Source of the DNA: Oceanidesulfovibrio marinus
GTDB lineage: Bacteria > Desulfobacterota > Desulfovibrionia > Desulfovibrionales > Desulfovibrionaceae
Reading direction: 5' to 3'
DNA length: 64,000 nucleotides
NCBI RefSeq assembly: GCF_013085545.1
Contig: NZ_CP039543.1
Location: 2,232,001-2,296,000 of the forward strand
The position numbers and the translations under genes are program-made. The notes below the pieces were generated by a model. It ran no database searches. It saw only the letters and a list, made by a program, of their open reading frames with translations, and was not told the DNA's origin. Position 1 is the stretch's first letter; the number at the start of each line of letters is the position of its first letter. This document shows, one piece after another, positions 13,118-20,279 of the stretch.

Positions 13118-13684
13118 CTACCAGTAGCCGCGCTTCACGGCCGGCTTGTTCAGCGTGGTGATGAACGAGTCCGCATCCTCGGCGGCCACCTCCGGCGGCA
13201 AGTGAATGTAGGCGATGCGGAACTTGCCTGTGTTGCGATCGGCCTTATGTGTCACAATAAGGCGTCCGAGCCGCCAGCGCACGTAGCTGACGCCGAACTT
13301 GGTCCAGCGCTCGCCCTCGCCGTACTCCAGCCGGAGCGAGGTGAGCATGGTCGTCGCTTCGTCCGCGGACTGCGGCTGGATGTAGACGCCCTGCAAGGCG
13401 TCCTGGTAGAATACGTACACGGTGGGAACGGGAGCGAGCCCGGCCGGGCGGTACTCCTGGTCCTTGCGGCGGTAGAACTGTATCGCCCCCTCGCGGCGGT
13501 CCGCCGGGGCCATATCGCTTTCCACGTCCTCCAGGGGCGTGCCCCAGGCCAGGCCGTCAAAGGCAGCCGGACCGTTGTCCGTGGCCGCTTCGGCTGTATC
13601 GGACAACGAGACGCACAGCGCAAAGGATGCCAGAACGAGAAAGAACGCCGCCTCGTGCCACCGTATCGATTGTAAGCGGTTCAT
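13118..13684 (-). CDS. Small exported protein, F-x-G-x-x-WG-x-P family (copy 1)
   Basis: A 188-residue protein with an N-terminal membrane-export signal (residues ~12-34, ending DTAEAA). The mature part begins FDGLAWGTPLEDV, a short motif seen at the start of many small secreted bacterial domains, followed by alternating strands rich in Tyr and Arg (TVYVFYQDALQGVYI, FGVSYVRWRLGRLIVTHK). It resembles the product at 19689-20279 in motif order and length. The frame is open to 13816, but ATG 13684 immediately precedes the signal peptide. No function is known to me; a periplasmic or envelope location is likely. Confidence 0.78.
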   Translation of the reverse strand: MNRLQSIRWHEAAFFLVLASFALCVSLSDTAEAATDNGPAAFDGLAWGTPLEDVESDMAPADRREGAIQFYRRKDQEYRPAGLAPVPTVYVFYQDALQGVYIQPQSADEATTMLTSLRLEYGEGERWTKFGVSYVRWRLGRLIVTHKADRNTGKFRIAYIHLPPEVAAEDADSFITTLNKPAVKRGYW

Positions 13685-13783
13685 GGCCGGGTAGTTACGC
13701 GAACCGGACGCAGGCCGCAAGGAAGCACTGTCCATATCACGCATCCGGCCCCAAAGGCCGCACCAATACCGACGCACTGAACC

Positions 13784-14425
13784 ATGGCCAAGATCATCCC
13801 CATCTCCAGTCCCCATACCACCAAGGACAAGCTCGTCGAGGCCACCGCCGCCGTGCTGGCCAGGGACGGCTACAACAAGCTGCGGCTGCAGACCGTGGCC
13901 GATGAAGCAGGCGTGAGCTACGGCGTGGCCCTGCGCAAGTACGGCGGATTGCGCTGCCTGGTGAAATCCCTGGGTGCAAGTCCGGCCTTCTGGCCTCCGG
14001 CCTCCGAGCTTCTGGGCGACGACACCGCTTCACTGAGCGCTCTTGAGCCCCACGCGCAGATGGCCGCCTTTTTCAAACGCAGCCTGCGCGCCCTGCTGGA
14101 CCGGCCGCAAACCCTGGACATCCTTGCCTGGGAGGCCGTGGAGCGCAACGAGCTGACCAAGCTCATGGAGGACTGCCGCGTGCACACCGCGCTGGAGTTC
14201 TTCGAGCACCTCTCCGGCGAGGTGCCGGAAGAGGACGACCTTTCCACGGTGGTGCTCATCCTGGCCGTGGCCATCCAGCACCTTGCAGTGCGCTCGCGCA
14301 ACACCAAAAGCATGGGCGGCGTGGATCTGACCTCGGACAAGGGCTGGGACAGGGTGGAGCGCGCCATCGACAAGCTGGTGGAAGGGTTCTTCACCCTGTA
14401 CAGCGACAGCTCCGCCGGCGGCTGA
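13784..14425 (+). CDS. TetR/AcrR-family transcriptional regulator
   Basis: A 213-residue repressor-type protein. The N-terminal helix-turn-helix spans about residues 13-58 (KLVEATAAVLARDGYNKLRLQTVADEAGVSYGVALRKYGG). The usual Y-x-Y/H-F of the recognition helix is altered to ALRKYGGLRCLV. The C-terminal ligand domain is helical (MAAFFKRSLRALLDRP; FFEHLSGEVP). It is codirectional with the deacetylase-like gene 108 bases downstream, and an 18-base inverted repeat lies just after its stop (14429-14446), a possible operator. Its ligand is unknown. Confidence 0.88.
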   Translation: MAKIIPISSPHTTKDKLVEATAAVLARDGYNKLRLQTVADEAGVSYGVALRKYGGLRCLVKSLGASPAFWPPASELLGDDTASLSALEPHAQMAAFFKRSLRALLDRPQTLDILAWEAVERNELTKLMEDCRVHTALEFFEHLSGEVPEEDDLSTVVLILAVAIQHLAVRSRNTKSMGGVDLTSDKGWDRVERAIDKLVEGFFTLYSDSSAGG

Positions 14426-14446: not shown

Positions 14447-14533
14447 GAATCAGCCCACTTTTCCGGACACTCGCCTCTTCCTGATGGAGCTTGCGCGCGG
14501 ATCATGCTACGTCCTTGCCCCTGGAGGACGCCC

Positions 14534-15601
14534 ATGCTGCTCTACGATCCCGACATCGCCATCCGCTTTTCCGCCTACGGATTCCAGATTCCCGACCCCG
14601 GCGACCGCGCTGCCCGCGTGATCTGCGACCTCCTGGAGCCCGGCTCCCAGACAACCGAGCCGGACACCGCTTCCACAGAATGCCACCTGGACGGTGCGCG
14701 GCAATCCGTGCTCCTGGAGCCGGCAAGCGCCGAAGACCTAGCCCGCGTCCATACGCCGGAGTACCTCGACGTCATCCTTTCCGACGATCCCTCGCCAGCG
14801 CTGCACGTAGTTTATGAGCTCTTCGACGAGCAGGGCCGGCCCAACCGTTATGACCCGGCTGCGGCCACCCTGCCTTTGACCGACCTGGTGGACCGCGCCC
14901 GCCGCCACGTGGCCGGCACCATCCGCGCCGTGGCGATCGCCCTGGACCCCGCCAACGCGGGCCGCTTCTGCTACTTCCTGGGGGGCGGCATGCACCACGG
15001 CATGGCGGGCGAGGGCCGGGGATTCTGCCCCTTCAACGACATCGTGGCCGCCCTGCGCGCCGCACGCGCCGCCGACACGGCCAAACGGTTCTGGATAATC
15101 GACACCGACGCCCACCGCGGCGACGGCACTGCCGCGCTCTGCCTGGAAGACCCGGACACCGCCACCCTCTCCATCCACATGGCCTCGGGCTGGCCCCTGG
15201 ACGGTCCGTTCTGCGAGGCCGACGGCCGGCTGCACCGCGCGCGCATTCCCTCCACCTTGGATATTCCGGTGGCCGAAGGGTGCGACGCCTTCTATCTGCC
15301 TGCTCTGGAAAAAGGGCTGCACACGCTGGAGAGCGTGACCCACGCCAACTGGAACGGCGCCGGTCCGGACGCCGCCATCGTGGTGGCCGGGTGCGACCCC
15401 TACAAGCACGACGAGCTGCCCAGCGCACGGCCCCTGCAGCTGACATTGGAGCAGCTGGGCCAGCGCGACCGGCTCGTACACCGGTTTCTGGCCCAGCGCT
15501 CTATCCCCCAGGCCTGGATTATGGCCGGCGGCTACGGCTCCCGCGCCCACGAGCCGGTAACGCAATTCCTGCGCTACGCCGCCTCCAACGGGCTGATCTG
15601 A
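14534..15601 (+). CDS. Histone deacetylase-like amidohydrolase
   Basis: A 355-residue member of the arginase/deacetylase superfamily (HDAC, AcuC and acetylpolyamine amidohydrolase relatives). Visible motifs in order are: GGGMHHGMAGEGRGFCPFND, which holds the catalytic His pair (~residues 153-172); IDTDAHRGDGT with the first metal ligands Asp and His; GCDPYKHDELP with the third metal Asp; and a C-terminal GGYGS in place of the usual Gly-rich Tyr loop. The substrate could be an acetylated protein lysine, polyamine or small molecule. GGAGG precedes ATG 14534. Its partner may be the TetR gene upstream. The Arg in DAHRGDG replaces the more common His. Confidence 0.85.
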   Translation: MLLYDPDIAIRFSAYGFQIPDPGDRAARVICDLLEPGSQTTEPDTASTECHLDGARQSVLLEPASAEDLARVHTPEYLDVILSDDPSPALHVVYELFDEQGRPNRYDPAAATLPLTDLVDRARRHVAGTIRAVAIALDPANAGRFCYFLGGGMHHGMAGEGRGFCPFNDIVAALRAARAADTAKRFWIIDTDAHRGDGTAALCLEDPDTATLSIHMASGWPLDGPFCEADGRLHRARIPSTLDIPVAEGCDAFYLPALEKGLHTLESVTHANWNGAGPDAAIVVAGCDPYKHDELPSARPLQLTLEQLGQRDRLVHRFLAQRSIPQAWIMAGGYGSRAHEPVTQFLRYAASNGLI

Positions 15602-15710: not shown

Positions 15711-16547
15711 TCAGCCCTGCTCGTCCAACAGTCCGCCGGAATCCTTCAAAATGAGATCGACGAGCAGGTTCTCCACGGACAGGGATGTGGTGTTCTGCCG
15801 CCGCGCTTCCACGGCCTGGTCCAGGAGCGTGGCCTGGTTTTCCAGCGAAGACGCCTGGGACTCCAGCATGCTCTCGCGGCTCTGGTAGATGTCGTCGATG
15901 GTGGTGATCGCGCTGGTGAAGTCGTCCACCAGAAGCGTCTGGCCGGCGAGGTCCGTGGCCAGACTGCTGCCCTGCAGATCGCTCCAGCTGCTGCCGGAGA
16001 CCGGGTCGTCCACGGCGTGGAAGCTCACGTTGAACCCGCCGTCCTTGAACGCCTGGATGTAGACCTGCCCGCTGGAGTTGATCTGCTCCGTGCCCCACTG
16101 GCTGGAGTCCAGCATGTAGATGCCGTTGTAGTCCGTGCTCTCGTAGATGCCGGTGATCTGGTCGCGCAGGGCATCGTAGTCGGCCTGCACCGAGGGGTCG
16201 GAGGCAATCAGCTCACCCGAGTTGATCTTGTCGATGATGTCTTCCATGGACGAGAGCGCGTCCAGAATCTGGCTGGTGCCGCTCTGGGCCACCCCCATCA
16301 TCGTGGCCGCCTCGGTCACGTTGTCCGCGTTGCGGCGCACGGCCGCCGCATCCCCGCGCAGGGTTCCGGTTATGGCCTCGTCAAACGGGTTGGTCAGCGG
16401 CTGCACCGGCTGCCTGGCCAGCACCATGTCGCGCAGGGAGCTGCCCACCTGGGAGTTCATGAAGTAGGCGTTGGTGAGCAGGTCCTGCGAGAGCAGCCTG
16501 CTGGAGATGTCGTAGATGAAGTTCTTCTCGAAATCGTTGAGCGCCAT
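15711..16547 (-). CDS. Flagellin-like protein
   Basis: A 278-residue protein without a signal peptide. Residues ~65-140 and ~225-278 have the heptad-rich, Ala/Asn/Ser/Gln pattern of flagellin and hook-associated protein D1 helices (NADNVTEAATMMGVAQSGTSQ; SQASSLENQATLLDQAVEAR). A central stretch has the Tyr-Asn-Gly-Ile segment (STDYNGIYMLD) like flagellin YNGQKLL. The N-terminus (MALNDFEKNFIYDISSRLL) is not the usual MxINTNxxAL, and the C-terminus lacks the canonical flagellin end. No flagellar genes are close, so this may be a minor filament, hook-filament junction protein or relic. GAGGTG precedes ATG 16547. Confidence 0.75.
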   Translation of the reverse strand: MALNDFEKNFIYDISSRLLSQDLLTNAYFMNSQVGSSLRDMVLARQPVQPLTNPFDEAITGTLRGDAAAVRRNADNVTEAATMMGVAQSGTSQILDALSSMEDIIDKINSGELIASDPSVQADYDALRDQITGIYESTDYNGIYMLDSSQWGTEQINSSGQVYIQAFKDGGFNVSFHAVDDPVSGSSWSDLQGSSLATDLAGQTLLVDDFTSAITTIDDIYQSRESMLESQASSLENQATLLDQAVEARRQNTTSLSVENLLVDLILKDSGGLLDEQG

Positions 16548-16752
16548 GGCGTCACCTCGCGGGCTTGTCCCTCGCCCTGTCTGAACGGCGGAAGGACAAA
16601 CAAAGCCGTATATCGGTCATATCGGCAGCCAGGCAGATAACCTTTAGAGTTCGGGGATATTTGTGGTTAGCCTGGAGATTACGCTTGCCTCCGTCGCGCC
16701 GCCGCATAGGATGGGCATGGTAGGTAAACCACAATCACCAAGGAGCATCCCT

Positions 16753-17055: not shown

Positions 17056-17087
17056 CCCTGCCGCGCCATCCGCCGGAAAAGAACACG

Positions 17088-17116
17088 CGCCGGTTCCGCA
17101 AGGGGCCGGCGTTTTT
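17088..17116 (+). terminator. Terminator after EF-hand gene 1
   Basis: Ten-base stem CGCCGGTTCC / GGGGCCGGCG with two G-T pairs, a GCAA tetraloop, then TTTTT. Confidence 0.9.
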
Positions 17117-17296
17117 ATTGTGATTCTGGAAAACTTTTTCGTGCACCGTCTTTGCATGGACACGCCGTTTTTCCTTGAAACAACGCGTATCCACATTTTG
17201 CGAGTATGTTTTTCCCGGCGCATTTCAGCTTCAAGTCCTTTATCCACGGGGAAATTCAGCCTAAAGAACATTCCACCCCGGACCGATACATGGGGT

Positions 17297-19003
17297 ATGA
17301 TCGCTCCTATCGATACCAATTATTCACAGCTTCAATCGGCTAAGTCCGCCGGCGCTGCCTCCCCGACCGAGGCAGAAACCGCCGCCGCAAAAGCCGGGCT
17401 GTCCGGAAAGTCCGGCCAAATTCTGGATACTGTGAACATCTCCAGCGAGGCCCGGACCAAGTGGGCCACGCTCTCCGTGGAGTCTCCCGAAGAGAACGCC
17501 ACAGAGAGTATGGACACCTGGGAAAGCCGGCTGGGCCTGCAGAGCGGGACCACCAAGCTGGAGAACGGCCACACCCGCGTCGTGAAGATAGAGGGCTCAA
17601 ACCTGGAGATTCAGGAGTTCGCCAATGGCAAGCTGGTGCAGTCCACCACCGGCGGGCTGACCGAATCGGGCATATCCCTGAACACCGAGATCTACAACAA
17701 GTGGGGCAAGGTCAGCCAGACGATCCAGACGGAGCTGGAAGAAGCAGAGGACGGCACGGTCAAGGCCTCGCGCTCCCTCCAGTGGTTCGACGGCGAGGAA
17801 CTGACCCGATCCATGCACGAGGAGATGTCGCTCAACAGCCAGTACAGCAAGGTCTCCGACCTAAGCAGCGGCATGCAGTTCCAGATAACGCAGTTCCTGG
17901 GCGGCGAGACCCAGGTCGATCCGGAAGACCTGAAGAATCTGACCCTGGACAAGCACGTCACCAAATATTCCGCGAACATACAGGACTATGCCAACGGCAC
18001 GCTCATCCGGGACACCGCCATCCGCCAGAATGCGAGCTACGACAATGTGACCAACAGGTCCGACCAACGCATCGGCAACCTGGAGGCCAGACACACTGCC
18101 GAGCTCAGCCACTCGGTCAACCTGTCCTTTGAAACCAGTGAGTACGACAAGGACGGCGAGCTGATCCGCCAGGTTAGCTTTACGGAAGCACAGGCGGACG
18201 GGCAGGACGCCAACGACGGCAAGTTGCAACAGGATCTGTCCGTGTCCTGGTACGTTGACGGCGAGATCGTGAAGCAGAGTTCCGGCAGCCTGACGCTGGA
18301 GGAGACGGAGAACGCCAAGCTCCACAAGCGGCCAAACCTCCTGGAGATGCTCGATCTGAGTCAGGAGGAGTATTCCACAGACGAGCCGCAATCGTCGGCC
18401 GATCTCCTGTCCAGGAACTTGCTGGACAACATCTCCGAGGCCGATACGCACAACAAGGGCCTTAAGCGGCACATCGGCAAGGGCCATTACAACTCGGCCG
18501 ACGACATCGCCAAATGGGGCGCGGGCAGCCAGCCCTACAGCATCTCCTGGACCGATACCCTCTACGCCGACGGCGACATGGTCTCCCGTCAGACTGACGA
18601 GGAGTCCGCCAGGAAGAACCCGGCGTATAACCCGCTGGAGTTCCACGTGGCCCGCGGCCTGACCGAGAACGACCCTGCCGCCATCCTGCGCAGCACCAGC
18701 CATACGGATGTGGGCTACGAAAACGGCTTCGAGAAAAGCCGTGGCACTGTGGAGTCCCACGAGTACACCCATCCGGACAAGGACGGCGTGGACGAGCTCA
18801 AGACCCACACCCGAGGCGTCGTGGAAAAGGGACTGCACAAGGAGTCCGCCAGCCGGTCCTATGACGGCGGCATCGAGGCCCACGATCCGGAAGCGGACAA
18901 GGCGTCCCACTCCATGGCCCGGGAGATGACCCTGACCTTTGATGATCTCTTTGACCAGCTCCATGGCCTTGACGACACGCTGAAGCCGCAAGAGCAGTGG
19001 TAG
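17297..19003 (+). CDS. Large repeat protein of unknown function
   Basis: A 568-residue, highly polar and acidic protein with no signal peptide or membrane helix that I can see. The N-terminal ~55 residues are Ala/Ser-rich, ending DTVNISSEARTKW, a VNISSEA-type motif seen in small flagellum-linked proteins. The rest holds at least seven irregular copies of an aromatic-x(1-2)-D/N-G turn followed by a strand: EFANGKLVQS, QWFDGEELTRS, DYANGTLIRD, EYDKDGELIRQ, WYVDGEIVKQ, TLYADGDMVSRQ and GYENGFEKSR. This suggests stacked beta-hairpins. ATG 17297 has GGGG just before it; upstream sequence in frame is not protein-like. A strong terminator follows. No function assigned. Confidence 0.8.
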   Translation: MIAPIDTNYSQLQSAKSAGAASPTEAETAAAKAGLSGKSGQILDTVNISSEARTKWATLSVESPEENATESMDTWESRLGLQSGTTKLENGHTRVVKIEGSNLEIQEFANGKLVQSTTGGLTESGISLNTEIYNKWGKVSQTIQTELEEAEDGTVKASRSLQWFDGEELTRSMHEEMSLNSQYSKVSDLSSGMQFQITQFLGGETQVDPEDLKNLTLDKHVTKYSANIQDYANGTLIRDTAIRQNASYDNVTNRSDQRIGNLEARHTAELSHSVNLSFETSEYDKDGELIRQVSFTEAQADGQDANDGKLQQDLSVSWYVDGEIVKQSSGSLTLEETENAKLHKRPNLLEMLDLSQEEYSTDEPQSSADLLSRNLLDNISEADTHNKGLKRHIGKGHYNSADDIAKWGAGSQPYSISWTDTLYADGDMVSRQTDEESARKNPAYNPLEFHVARGLTENDPAAILRSTSHTDVGYENGFEKSRGTVESHEYTHPDKDGVDELKTHTRGVVEKGLHKESASRSYDGGIEAHDPEADKASHSMAREMTLTFDDLFDQLHGLDDTLKPQEQW

Positions 19004-19028
19004 CCGCCACACCCATCGAGCACCCAGA

Positions 19029-19058
19029 ACGCCGGCGAATCACCCCGCCGGCGTTTTT
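19029..19058 (+). terminator. Terminator after the large repeat-protein gene
   Basis: Nine-base perfect stem ACGCCGGCG / CGCCGGCGT with an 8-base loop, followed by TTTTT. Confidence 0.92.
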
Positions 19059-19688: not shown

Positions 19689-20279
19689 CTACGGCATGGA
19701 GGTGCCGCGCATGCGCATCATCTCCAGCCAGTAGAGCCGGTCCAGCTTCTGCTCGTCGATGTCCTCTGCGCCCTGGTCCAGGGCCAGCTCCACGTGCTCG
19801 TACAGTGGCAGAAAGTAGTAGGCGAGCTTCATGGCCCCAGTGCGCTTGATCTTTTTGAGCTTCACCTTGAGGTGCTCGAAGCGCCACTGCCGGACGTACG
19901 TCTCGGTCTCGTCTATGATGCGTGGCTCGCCGTACTCCTTGGTCCAGCGTTGCAGCAGCATGTCGAAAAGTTCCTGCGTGGCCACGTCCACATACACGCC
20001 GTAAAGCCTGCCTTCGATAAAGCCATAGATGATGCGTGGCTGGGGGAACCCTTCGAACTCGAAGTCCTCCTGCGTGTTCAGGTAGAACTCGGCATTGCCG
20101 CGCTGCTTGAGCTTGGCGAAGTGCTCAAGCCCTTCCCGCGGCGCACCCCAGGGAATGCCGTTAAACCCTGGCGGCCCCTGCGGTTCCGCCTGTGCGACGG
20201 CGACCAGGGCGACAAGGAGCGCTGCCGCAAAAAGCGATGCGAGCCAAAGGCGCGGGCAAGGCGATCCGTTGGTTGCCAT
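19689..20279 (-). CDS. Small exported protein, F-x-G-x-x-WG-x-P family (copy 2)
   Basis: A 196-residue protein with a signal peptide (ASLFAAALLVALVAVAQA, about residues 14-31). The mature start FNGIPWGAPREGLEHF matches FDGLAWGTPLEDVESD of the product at 13118-13684, and both continue with a Tyr-rich strand (RIIYGFIEGRLYGVYVDV here) and a W-x-x-EYGE segment before a charged end. GGAG precedes ATG 20279. It ends at a shared bidirectional terminator. Function unknown; envelope location likely. Confidence 0.78.
   Translation of the reverse strand: MATNGSPCPRLWLASLFAAALLVALVAVAQAEPQGPPGFNGIPWGAPREGLEHFAKLKQRGNAEFYLNTQEDFEFEGFPQPRIIYGFIEGRLYGVYVDVATQELFDMLLQRWTKEYGEPRIIDETETYVRQWRFEHLKVKLKKIKRTGAMKLAYYFLPLYEHVELALDQGAEDIDEQKLDRLYWLEMMRMRGTSMP

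What the first reader, a model, noticed from the sequence alone, without database searches (positions are those of the whole stretch)
17297..19003. 568-residue acidic protein with repeated aromatic-x-x-D/N-G turns, flanked by two EF-hand proteins
At least seven irregular turns of the form EFANG, QWFDG, DYANG, EYDKDG, WYVDG, TLYADG and GYENG recur with a following strand, suggesting a stacked beta-hairpin fold. It has no signal peptide, but its two neighbours are secreted EF-hand proteins that share an EW-x(3-4)-K-x-HG junction. The N-terminal DTVNISSEAR segment is a motif I associate with flagellum-linked proteins, and a flagellin-like gene lies 0.75 kb upstream.
Basis: partly seen in the sequence, partly recalled or inferred. 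Interest (0 to 1): 0.6.

Follow-up and report, generated by a model that had tools for sequence, protein, structure and literature searches.

The report
Flagellar-regulon stacked-hairpin protein, probably exported
This is a member of an unnamed bacterial protein family that appears to be switched on together with the flagellum and is probably pushed out of the cell through it, to fold outside into a long flat sheet of repeated hairpins.

Summary
Window 17297-19003 (+) is a real gene for a 568-aa acidic protein; all seven turns fall at strand-turn-strand boundaries of a good AlphaFold model (pLDDT 84, pTM 0.80). It belongs to an uncurated family: 39 copies in 35 of 288 genomes of its taxonomic family, none found outside. 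A sigma-28 (FliA) box of 12 or more of 16 lies upstream of 33 of 39 copies but of only 7 of 423 neighbouring ORFs (the window gene itself scores 11, yet matches an exact genome pattern). The N-terminal DTVNISSEA resembles the first segment of the FlgM anti-sigma-28 domain, equally far from the start (30 of 30 extracted FlgM, in a slightly looser form). Cysteine is almost absent (7 in 22,063 residues; neighbours 1.34%). No homologue of the EF-hand neighbours lies near the gene in 36 other loci. Best reading: a sigma-28-class protein exported by the flagellar type III apparatus behind a FlgM-like tag, folding outside into an OspA-like single-layer sheet that serves as a surface or extracellular scaffold or adhesin. 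Promoter linkage and family are shown by computation; export and function are inferred.

The parts
17262..17289 (+). sigma-28 (FliA)-type promoter box TAAAG...CCGATAC, with 7 bases between it and the start codon, so the transcript may be almost leaderless
   Evidence: One of 12 exact TAAAG-N15/16-YCGATA sites in the 4.76-Mb genome, against 2 for the reversed control pattern. It scores only 11 of 16 against the E. coli consensus. The relative L056 has its box at nearly the same distance. Leaderlessness is inferred.
17297..19003 (+). gene of the 568-aa sigma-28-class stacked-hairpin protein
   Evidence: ORF; 38 homologues at 25-38% identity in the alignment
17297..17425 (+). residues 1-43: predicted disordered Ala/Ser-rich N-terminus without a signal peptide; putative flagellar export region
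   Evidence: pLDDT about 30; most hydrophobic 12-residue stretch averages only 0.26 on the Kyte-Doolittle scale
17426..17467 (+). residues 44-57: FlgM-type tag DTVNISSEA and short helix
   Evidence: 38 of 39 family members and 0 of 507 neighbouring ORFs by D.[VIAM].[ILF]S.[EDQKA][AG] in the first 90 residues; 30 of 30 extracted FlgM by D.[VI].[LIVF]S..A; helix 50-59 at low confidence
17546..18301 (+). residues 84-335: first antiparallel beta-sheet, 14 strands with hairpin turns
   Evidence: AlphaFold model, pLDDT mostly above 85
18338..18517 (+). residues 348-407: conserved helical linker
   Evidence: models; alignment
18536..18865 (+). residues 414-523: second sheet, 6 strands
   Evidence: model
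18899..18973 (+). residues 535-559: C-terminal helix
   Evidence: models; alignment
19026..19057 (+). stem-loop followed by a T-rich tail, probable terminator
   Evidence: fold -21.7 kcal/mol, z -6.8; not reported by the consensus scan
17087..17112 (+). terminator-like stem-loop of the upstream EF-hand gene, separating it from this gene
   Evidence: 3 such sites found, 3.0 expected by chance
16620..16646 (-). sigma-28-type box of the flagellin-like gene
   Evidence: exact site; 14 of 16
15711..16547 (-). 278-aa flagellin-like gene, no Cys; neighbour in the same predicted regulon
   Evidence: Flagellin_N E 6.9e-11; Cys count

Best explanation
The protein is a late-class member of the flagellar regulon. 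FliA (sigma-28) transcribes it once the hook is complete and FlgM has left. The chain is exported unfolded by the flagellar type III apparatus, led by about 43 disordered residues and a FlgM-like D-x-V-x-I-S-x-E-A segment. Outside, it folds into a long, mostly polar single-layer sheet of stacked hairpins (OspA-like, MORN_2-like), closed by a C-terminal helix. It then works without enzymatic activity as a surface, filament-associated or extracellular-matrix scaffold or adhesin. Shown here by computation: gene, family, promoter linkage, shared tag, cysteine depletion, predicted fold. Inferred: export route, place outside the cell, scaffold or adhesin role.
For: Sigma-28 box of at least 12 of 16 within 200 nt upstream: 33 of 39 members against 7 of 423 neighbouring ORFs (Fisher 1.8e-37); at least 13: 21 of 39 against 1 of 423, that one being the window's flagellin-like gene; 50 first-order Markov shuffles give on average 1.5 of 39, at most 5. 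34 of 35 carrier genomes have a strong FliA match (E <= 1e-69); the exception is 81% complete. FlgM in 33 of 34 carriers searched. Tag: 38 of 39 members, 0 of 507 neighbours; it starts at residue 32-47 in 36 of these 38 (two short chosen starts give 4 and 15) against 38-45 in 30 FlgM. Cys: 7 in 22,063 residues, 33 of 39 members without any, against 4 of 236 neighbour ORFs of 300 aa or more; Ser 10.2% and Thr 8.1%. The eight invariant residues show no obvious catalytic set (judgement). Fold.
Against: No secretion data. The window's own box scores only 11 of 16 and lies very close to the ATG; five other members also score below 12. Three other tagged proteins in relatives have no box, and the window genome's orthologue of one boxed, tagged gene lacks the tag, so tag and promoter are not strictly coupled. 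In FlgM this segment opens the domain named for sigma-28 binding, so it may be a binding rather than an export element. Only 35 of 288 genomes carry the gene although 237 of 288 pass the FliA cut-off, so it is an accessory. Start codons of the relatives were chosen by me. Neighbour ORFs were called crudely and omit some real small genes.
Confidence: 0.55

Rival explanations
1. A cytoplasmic FlgM-like regulator: the tag docks on FliA (or competes with FlgM), and the sheet is a scaffold that senses or titrates a flagellar component.
For: The tag resembles the first segment of the Pfam FlgM domain, and FlgM of this genome aligns there with DKVTLSKIAQ of the FlgM chain of 1rp3 (E 0.001). The protein has no signal peptide.
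Against: Cysteine depletion and Ser/Thr-rich composition are unusual among neighbouring large ORFs. It lacks the rest of the FlgM domain (no FlgM hit).
Confidence: 0.2
2. A structural flagellar part (cap, junction or filament sheath) that assembles into the organelle itself.
For: Sigma-28 control, almost no Cys, a C-terminal helix.
Against: No flagellin, FliD or FlgK/L family among the hits of 39 members. No long N-terminal helix to pair with the C-terminal one. Missing from most relatives that pass the FliA cut-off.
Confidence: 0.12
3. An outer-membrane or pore-forming beta-barrel.
Against: TM-scores of the listed Foldseek rows are low (query-normalised 0.06-0.19, target-normalised 0.05-0.24), and the porin rows fit loosely (for example rmsd 7.3 over 214). 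OspA rows fit more tightly (2.8 over 166; 3.7 over 217). Strand GRAVY is -0.66 and few strands have a hydrophobic face. No signal peptide.
Confidence: 0.04
4. A partner of the two secreted EF-hand proteins in a calcium-dependent extracellular system.
For: Adjacent in this window.
Against: No homologue of either EF-hand protein and no strict EF-loop match in 36 other loci (one possible short EF ORF in L041 by a looser pattern); terminator-like signals on both sides.
Confidence: 0.04

Closest known systems
Fed/FspA/FlaC-type proteins of Campylobacter jejuni (sigma-28-dependent, secreted non-flagellar proteins; passages of PMC5223770)
   Same: Working principle: the Fed group depends on sigma-28 for production and secretion, and FlaC and FspA need a minimal flagellum for export.
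   Different: No sequence link was tested. This family is about 570 aa, beta-hairpin-repeat and found only in one other taxonomic family; its secretion is unproven.
FlgM anti-sigma-28 factor (Pfam PF04316)
   Same: Segment D-x-[VI]-x-[LVIF]-S-x-[EDQ]-A at residue 38-45 of FlgM, close to the family's D-x-V-x-I-S-x-E-A; no cysteine in 30 FlgM; same regulatory circuit.
   Different: Only the first segment is shared; the rest of the FlgM domain is replaced by a 500-aa beta protein; no FlgM match.
MORN_2 repeat (PF07661, YwqK-type)
   Same: Short repeat with matches at the hairpins; 21 of 39 members give weak hits, best E 3.7e-6.
   Different: No hit for the window protein. All six hits that I saw singly (10 proteins scanned) are below the gathering score. 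Strands are longer and spacing irregular.
Borrelia OspA and its engineered variants (PDB 6kk9, 5z1o, 2fkj)
   Same: Single-layer sheet of stacked hairpins (recalled for OspA): Z 9.7, rmsd 2.8 over 166; Z 12.0, rmsd 3.7 over 217.
   Different: OspA is a lipoprotein (recalled); identity in the listed OspA rows is 10-15%. Unrelated barrels and an apolipoprotein B row reach similar or higher Z, so only an arrangement is shared.

Membership tests
Sigma-28 (FliA) regulon | TAAAGTTT-N11-GCCGATAA-type promoter upstream | tested here: met
   33 of 39 at 12 or more of 16 against 7 of 423 controls; window site found by exact pattern but only 11 of 16
Sigma-28 (FliA) regulon | expression lost without fliA | not testable with these tools
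   needs transcriptomics or a reporter
Flagellar type III substrate | flagellum-dependent appearance outside the cell | not testable with these tools
   needs a secretion assay
Flagellar type III substrate | no Sec signal, disordered N-terminus, Cys-poor (features recalled) | tested here: met
   supportive features, not definitive
FlgM (PF04316) | match to the FlgM domain model | tested here: not met
   no Pfam hit at E <= 10 for the window protein; FlgM not among the 22 families hit by any of 39 members at E <= 1
FlgM (PF04316) | first segment D-x-V-x-[IL]-S-x-E-A or close variant at about residue 40 | tested here: met
MORN_2 (PF07661) | gathering-score match | tested here: not met
   window protein no hit; the six hits seen singly are below 29.6 bits; the best-scoring member was not looked at singly
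Flagellin / FliD / FlgK-L | family model match | tested here: not met
OspA-like single-layer sheet | fold match above unrelated rows | tested here: inconclusive
   OspA rows have the lowest rmsd, but unrelated rows reach similar or higher Z
Known enzyme family | match to an enzyme model | tested here: not met
   none for the window protein; only isolated weak hits in single members

The most novel reading that the evidence does not exclude
The FlgM segment D-x-V-x-[IL]-S-x-E-A is a portable tag. By binding FliA, already reported as the export chaperone of FlgM, or the export gate, it pilots a whole set of unrelated proteins out through the completed hook. FliA would then both transcribe these genes and escort their products, and each exported tagged protein would also report on, or feed back to, FliA availability. 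Besides FlgM and this family, relatives carry the tag in the gene next to flgM (box 14 of 16 in two genomes) and in a 116-118-aa family (boxes 12-13 of 16 in three genomes), as well as in three proteins without a box.
Probability: 0.15. Interest if true: 0.8.

Novelty: new variant of a known kind. Interest (0 to 1): 0.55.

Why it matters
It adds an uncurated, sigma-28-linked protein family to the flagellar regulon of one bacterial family and suggests that these flagella carry out cargo beyond their own parts. The shared FlgM-like segment makes an open question testable: PMC5223770 says that no conserved amino-acid sequence had been identified in this context for Campylobacter (a truncated passage on non-flagellar proteins secreted via the flagellum).

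Tried and rejected
EF-hand partnership and conserved synteny with the flagellin-like gene: 0 homologues in 36 loci (with the window as positive control; the earlier tests agreed but lacked a self-control for the EF-hand proteins, and the two extra EF patterns tried would not have flagged the window's own). Neighbour clustering: no neighbour family was shared by more than 9 of 37 loci. Barrel reading: rejected on hydropathy and fit. Enzyme reading: no family match for the window protein. Phage origin: only isolated PHROG hits, 13 families with one member each, best E 2.5e-4. PDB sequence search with the family profile: nothing better than E 0.54. Naming the organism: both genome-contig scans found no relative; my guess that the group is Desulfovibrionaceae is recall only. 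Family outside its taxonomic family: 35 of 348 genomes in the order, all in the one family; profile search of 395 phylum genomes, 3 matches, all in the family. One search scanned a wrongly framed stretch and says nothing. The first FlgM extraction found only 6 of 30 and was redone by coordinates. Papers: searches; none of the titles or abstract starts listed points to this family, which has no name to search for; Desulfovibrio + MORN repeat + flagell gave one paper, on SAR324, not read. Seen as passages only: PMC3595227, PMC7725318, PMC5223770, PMC7643111. The general lack of cysteine in exported flagellar proteins is recalled; only the lack in one flagellin was seen in print (PMC7643111).

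Full report
WHAT IS THERE. The ORF 17297-19003 (+) encodes 568 aa, pI 4.7, 62.7 kDa. A second member, L047, modelled with a 36-row alignment drawn from the same family, gives nearly the same order of strands and helices (pLDDT 79.8, pTM 0.77). Layout: residues 1-43 disordered, a short helix at 50-59, a first sheet 84-335, a helical linker 348-407, a second sheet 414-523, and a C-terminal helix 535-559. The gene lies between a terminator-like stem-loop of the upstream gene (17087-17112; such sites are as frequent as chance in that scan) and a strong stem-loop with a T-rich tail at 19026-19057 (-21.7 kcal/mol, z -6.8).

FAMILY. 39 copies in 35 of 288 genomes of the same taxonomic family, 10 of 44 genera. 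Widening to the order (348 genomes) adds none, and a profile search of 395 genomes drawn across the phylum finds 3 carriers, all in this family. One genome has three copies, two genomes have two each. The one other genome of the window's genus that was searched has no match. Identity to the window protein is 25-38%. In a tree of 38 rows the genus labels need 9 changes, the least possible for 10 groups, although one genus on its own needs 2; this fits mostly vertical inheritance with losses, but no species tree was compared. The window protein itself has no Pfam or NCBIfam match. Across 39 members, MORN_2 is the only Pfam family that recurs widely (21 of 39 at E <= 1, best 3.7e-6); the six hits seen singly, of 10 proteins, are below the curated score.

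SIGMA-28 CONTROL. The best match to the E. coli FliA consensus (16 positions, spacer 10-12; consensus from recall) in the 200 nt upstream reaches 12 or more in 33 of 39 members and in 7 of 423 neighbouring ORFs (Fisher 1.8e-37); at 13 or more it is 21 of 39 against 1 of 423. That single control is the window's flagellin-like gene. Fifty rounds of first-order Markov shuffles of the upstream regions give on average 1.5 of 39, at most 5. The members are related, so the 39 are not independent. The window gene itself scores 11 of 16, below that line; its support comes from an exact-pattern search in which it is one of 12 sites in 4.76 Mb (2 for the reversed control), with another, that of the flagellin-like gene, about 0.6 kb away. 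Seven bases separate its box from the ATG; L056 has nearly the same spacing, so both messages may start almost at the ATG (inference). Six members fall below 12: the window, L058, L061, L041, L045 and L046. FliA is detected strongly in 34 of 35 carriers (the other is G246, 81% complete) and passes the cut-off in 237 of 288 genomes overall: FliA is needed for the reading but does not predict the gene.

FLGM-LIKE TAG. In the window genome a GC-biased degenerate DNA pattern for it hits four places: this gene, FlgM, and two unrelated proteins in mid-sequence. In FlgM it is where the Pfam domain match begins. All 30 FlgM proteins extracted from carriers have D.[VI].[LIVF]S..A at residue 38-45; the E position is E in 18, D in 6, Q in 6, and the fifth position is L in 22, V in 6. 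Family members have the motif at 32-47 except two with short chosen starts. By sequence, FlgM of this genome aligns with the FlgM chain of 1rp3 across this segment (E 0.001). In 18 relatives searched with the same DNA pattern (15 with a match; three carriers without any, so the pattern is not exhaustive), other tagged proteins appear: the gene upstream of flgM (two genomes, box 14 of 16 each; the window genome's orthologue lacks the tag), a 116-118-aa family (three genomes, boxes 12-13), and three proteins without a box (L129, L141, L145). GrpE in one genome (identified by eye) also matches near its N-terminus and is read as chance, and several unrelated proteins match in mid-sequence. So the tag often, but not always, goes with a sigma-28 box.

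EXPORT. There is no signal peptide (judged from hydropathy). Cysteine is 7 in 22,063 residues (33 of 39 members have none) against 1.34% in neighbouring ORFs of 300 aa or more, of which 4 of 236 have none (crude ORF calls). Serine and threonine are about doubled. FlgM (0 Cys in 3,067 residues) and the window's flagellin-like protein (0) share the lack. This fits an exported flagellar-class protein; it is not proof. The strands are hydrophilic (GRAVY -0.66).

FOLD. Foldseek against the PDB gives only weak matches, mainly outer-membrane barrels with TM-scores of 0.05-0.24 in the listed rows. On realignment OspA variants have the lowest deviations (2.8 A over 166 residues, Z 9.7; 3.7 A over 217, Z 12.0), but an apolipoprotein B row (Z 12.2 and 12.5) and porins (up to 11.4 and 11.6) reach similar or higher Z, so only the arrangement 'stacked hairpins in one layer' is claimed. 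Invariant columns are S49, W75, G119, R159, G287, Y423, G426, D530, with no evident catalytic set (judgement).

SURROUNDINGS. In six-frame ORFs (40 aa or more) of 36 loci around the other members (603 kb; most about 18 kb each, some cut by contig ends), there is no homologue of the two EF-hand proteins, the flagellin-like protein or the histone-deacetylase-type neighbour, and no strict EF-loop match, whereas the window's own are found. A looser EF pattern gives single matches in 8 loci; one, in a 58-aa ORF of L041, could be real. The EF-hand pair is therefore most likely a local coincidence. The flagellin-like gene shares the promoter type but not conserved neighbourhood.

MECHANISM. Step 1, transcription by FliA after FlgM export: promoter evidence shown, expression untested. 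Step 2, export of the unfolded chain by the flagellar apparatus with the N-terminal region and tag: inferred from tag, composition and lack of another signal. Step 3, folding outside into the sheet: predicted. Step 4, scaffold or adhesin action: inference from hydrophilic repeats, no catalytic set and accessory distribution. Campylobacter Fed proteins are described as dependent on sigma-28 for production and secretion (passages of PMC5223770). That sigma-28 is the type III chaperone of FlgM is taken from a title in the reference list of PMC3595227.

VERDICT. It is a new family working, in the best reading, like known flagellum-coexpressed secreted proteins, with an unusual tag shared with FlgM.

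Noticed in passing
window 15711-16547 (-), box at 16646-16620: Short orphan flagellin-like gene (278 aa, Flagellin_N match, no Cys) with its own strong sigma-28 box; no homologue near the family in 36 other loci.
   Followed up: partly
window 13118-13816 (-) and 19689-20279 (-): Two paralogous proteins of unknown family (phmmer E 2.4e-16; no Pfam hit) on either side of the region.
   Followed up: no
window 14504-15601 (+): Histone-deacetylase-family protein (Pfam E 2.7e-39) beside the flagellin-like gene.
   Followed up: no
L138, L139, L142 (tag at about residues 32-42 of 116-118-aa proteins): Another small Cys-free family with the FlgM-like tag and sigma-28 boxes (12-13 of 16).
   Followed up: partly
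L120 and L140; own orthologue in L077: The gene upstream of flgM carries the same tag and a sigma-28 box in two relatives; the window genome's orthologue lacks the tag.
   Followed up: partly
L129, L141, L145: Three proteins with a similar N-terminus and tag but no sigma-28 box (best 10, 9 and 8 of 16 within 350 nt).
   Followed up: partly
L055 6134-11969 (-): Three tandem copies of the family, each with its own sigma-28 box (13 of 16).
   Followed up: partly
L041, a 58-aa ORF: A lone EF-loop-like sequence near one family member, found only by a loose pattern.
   Followed up: no
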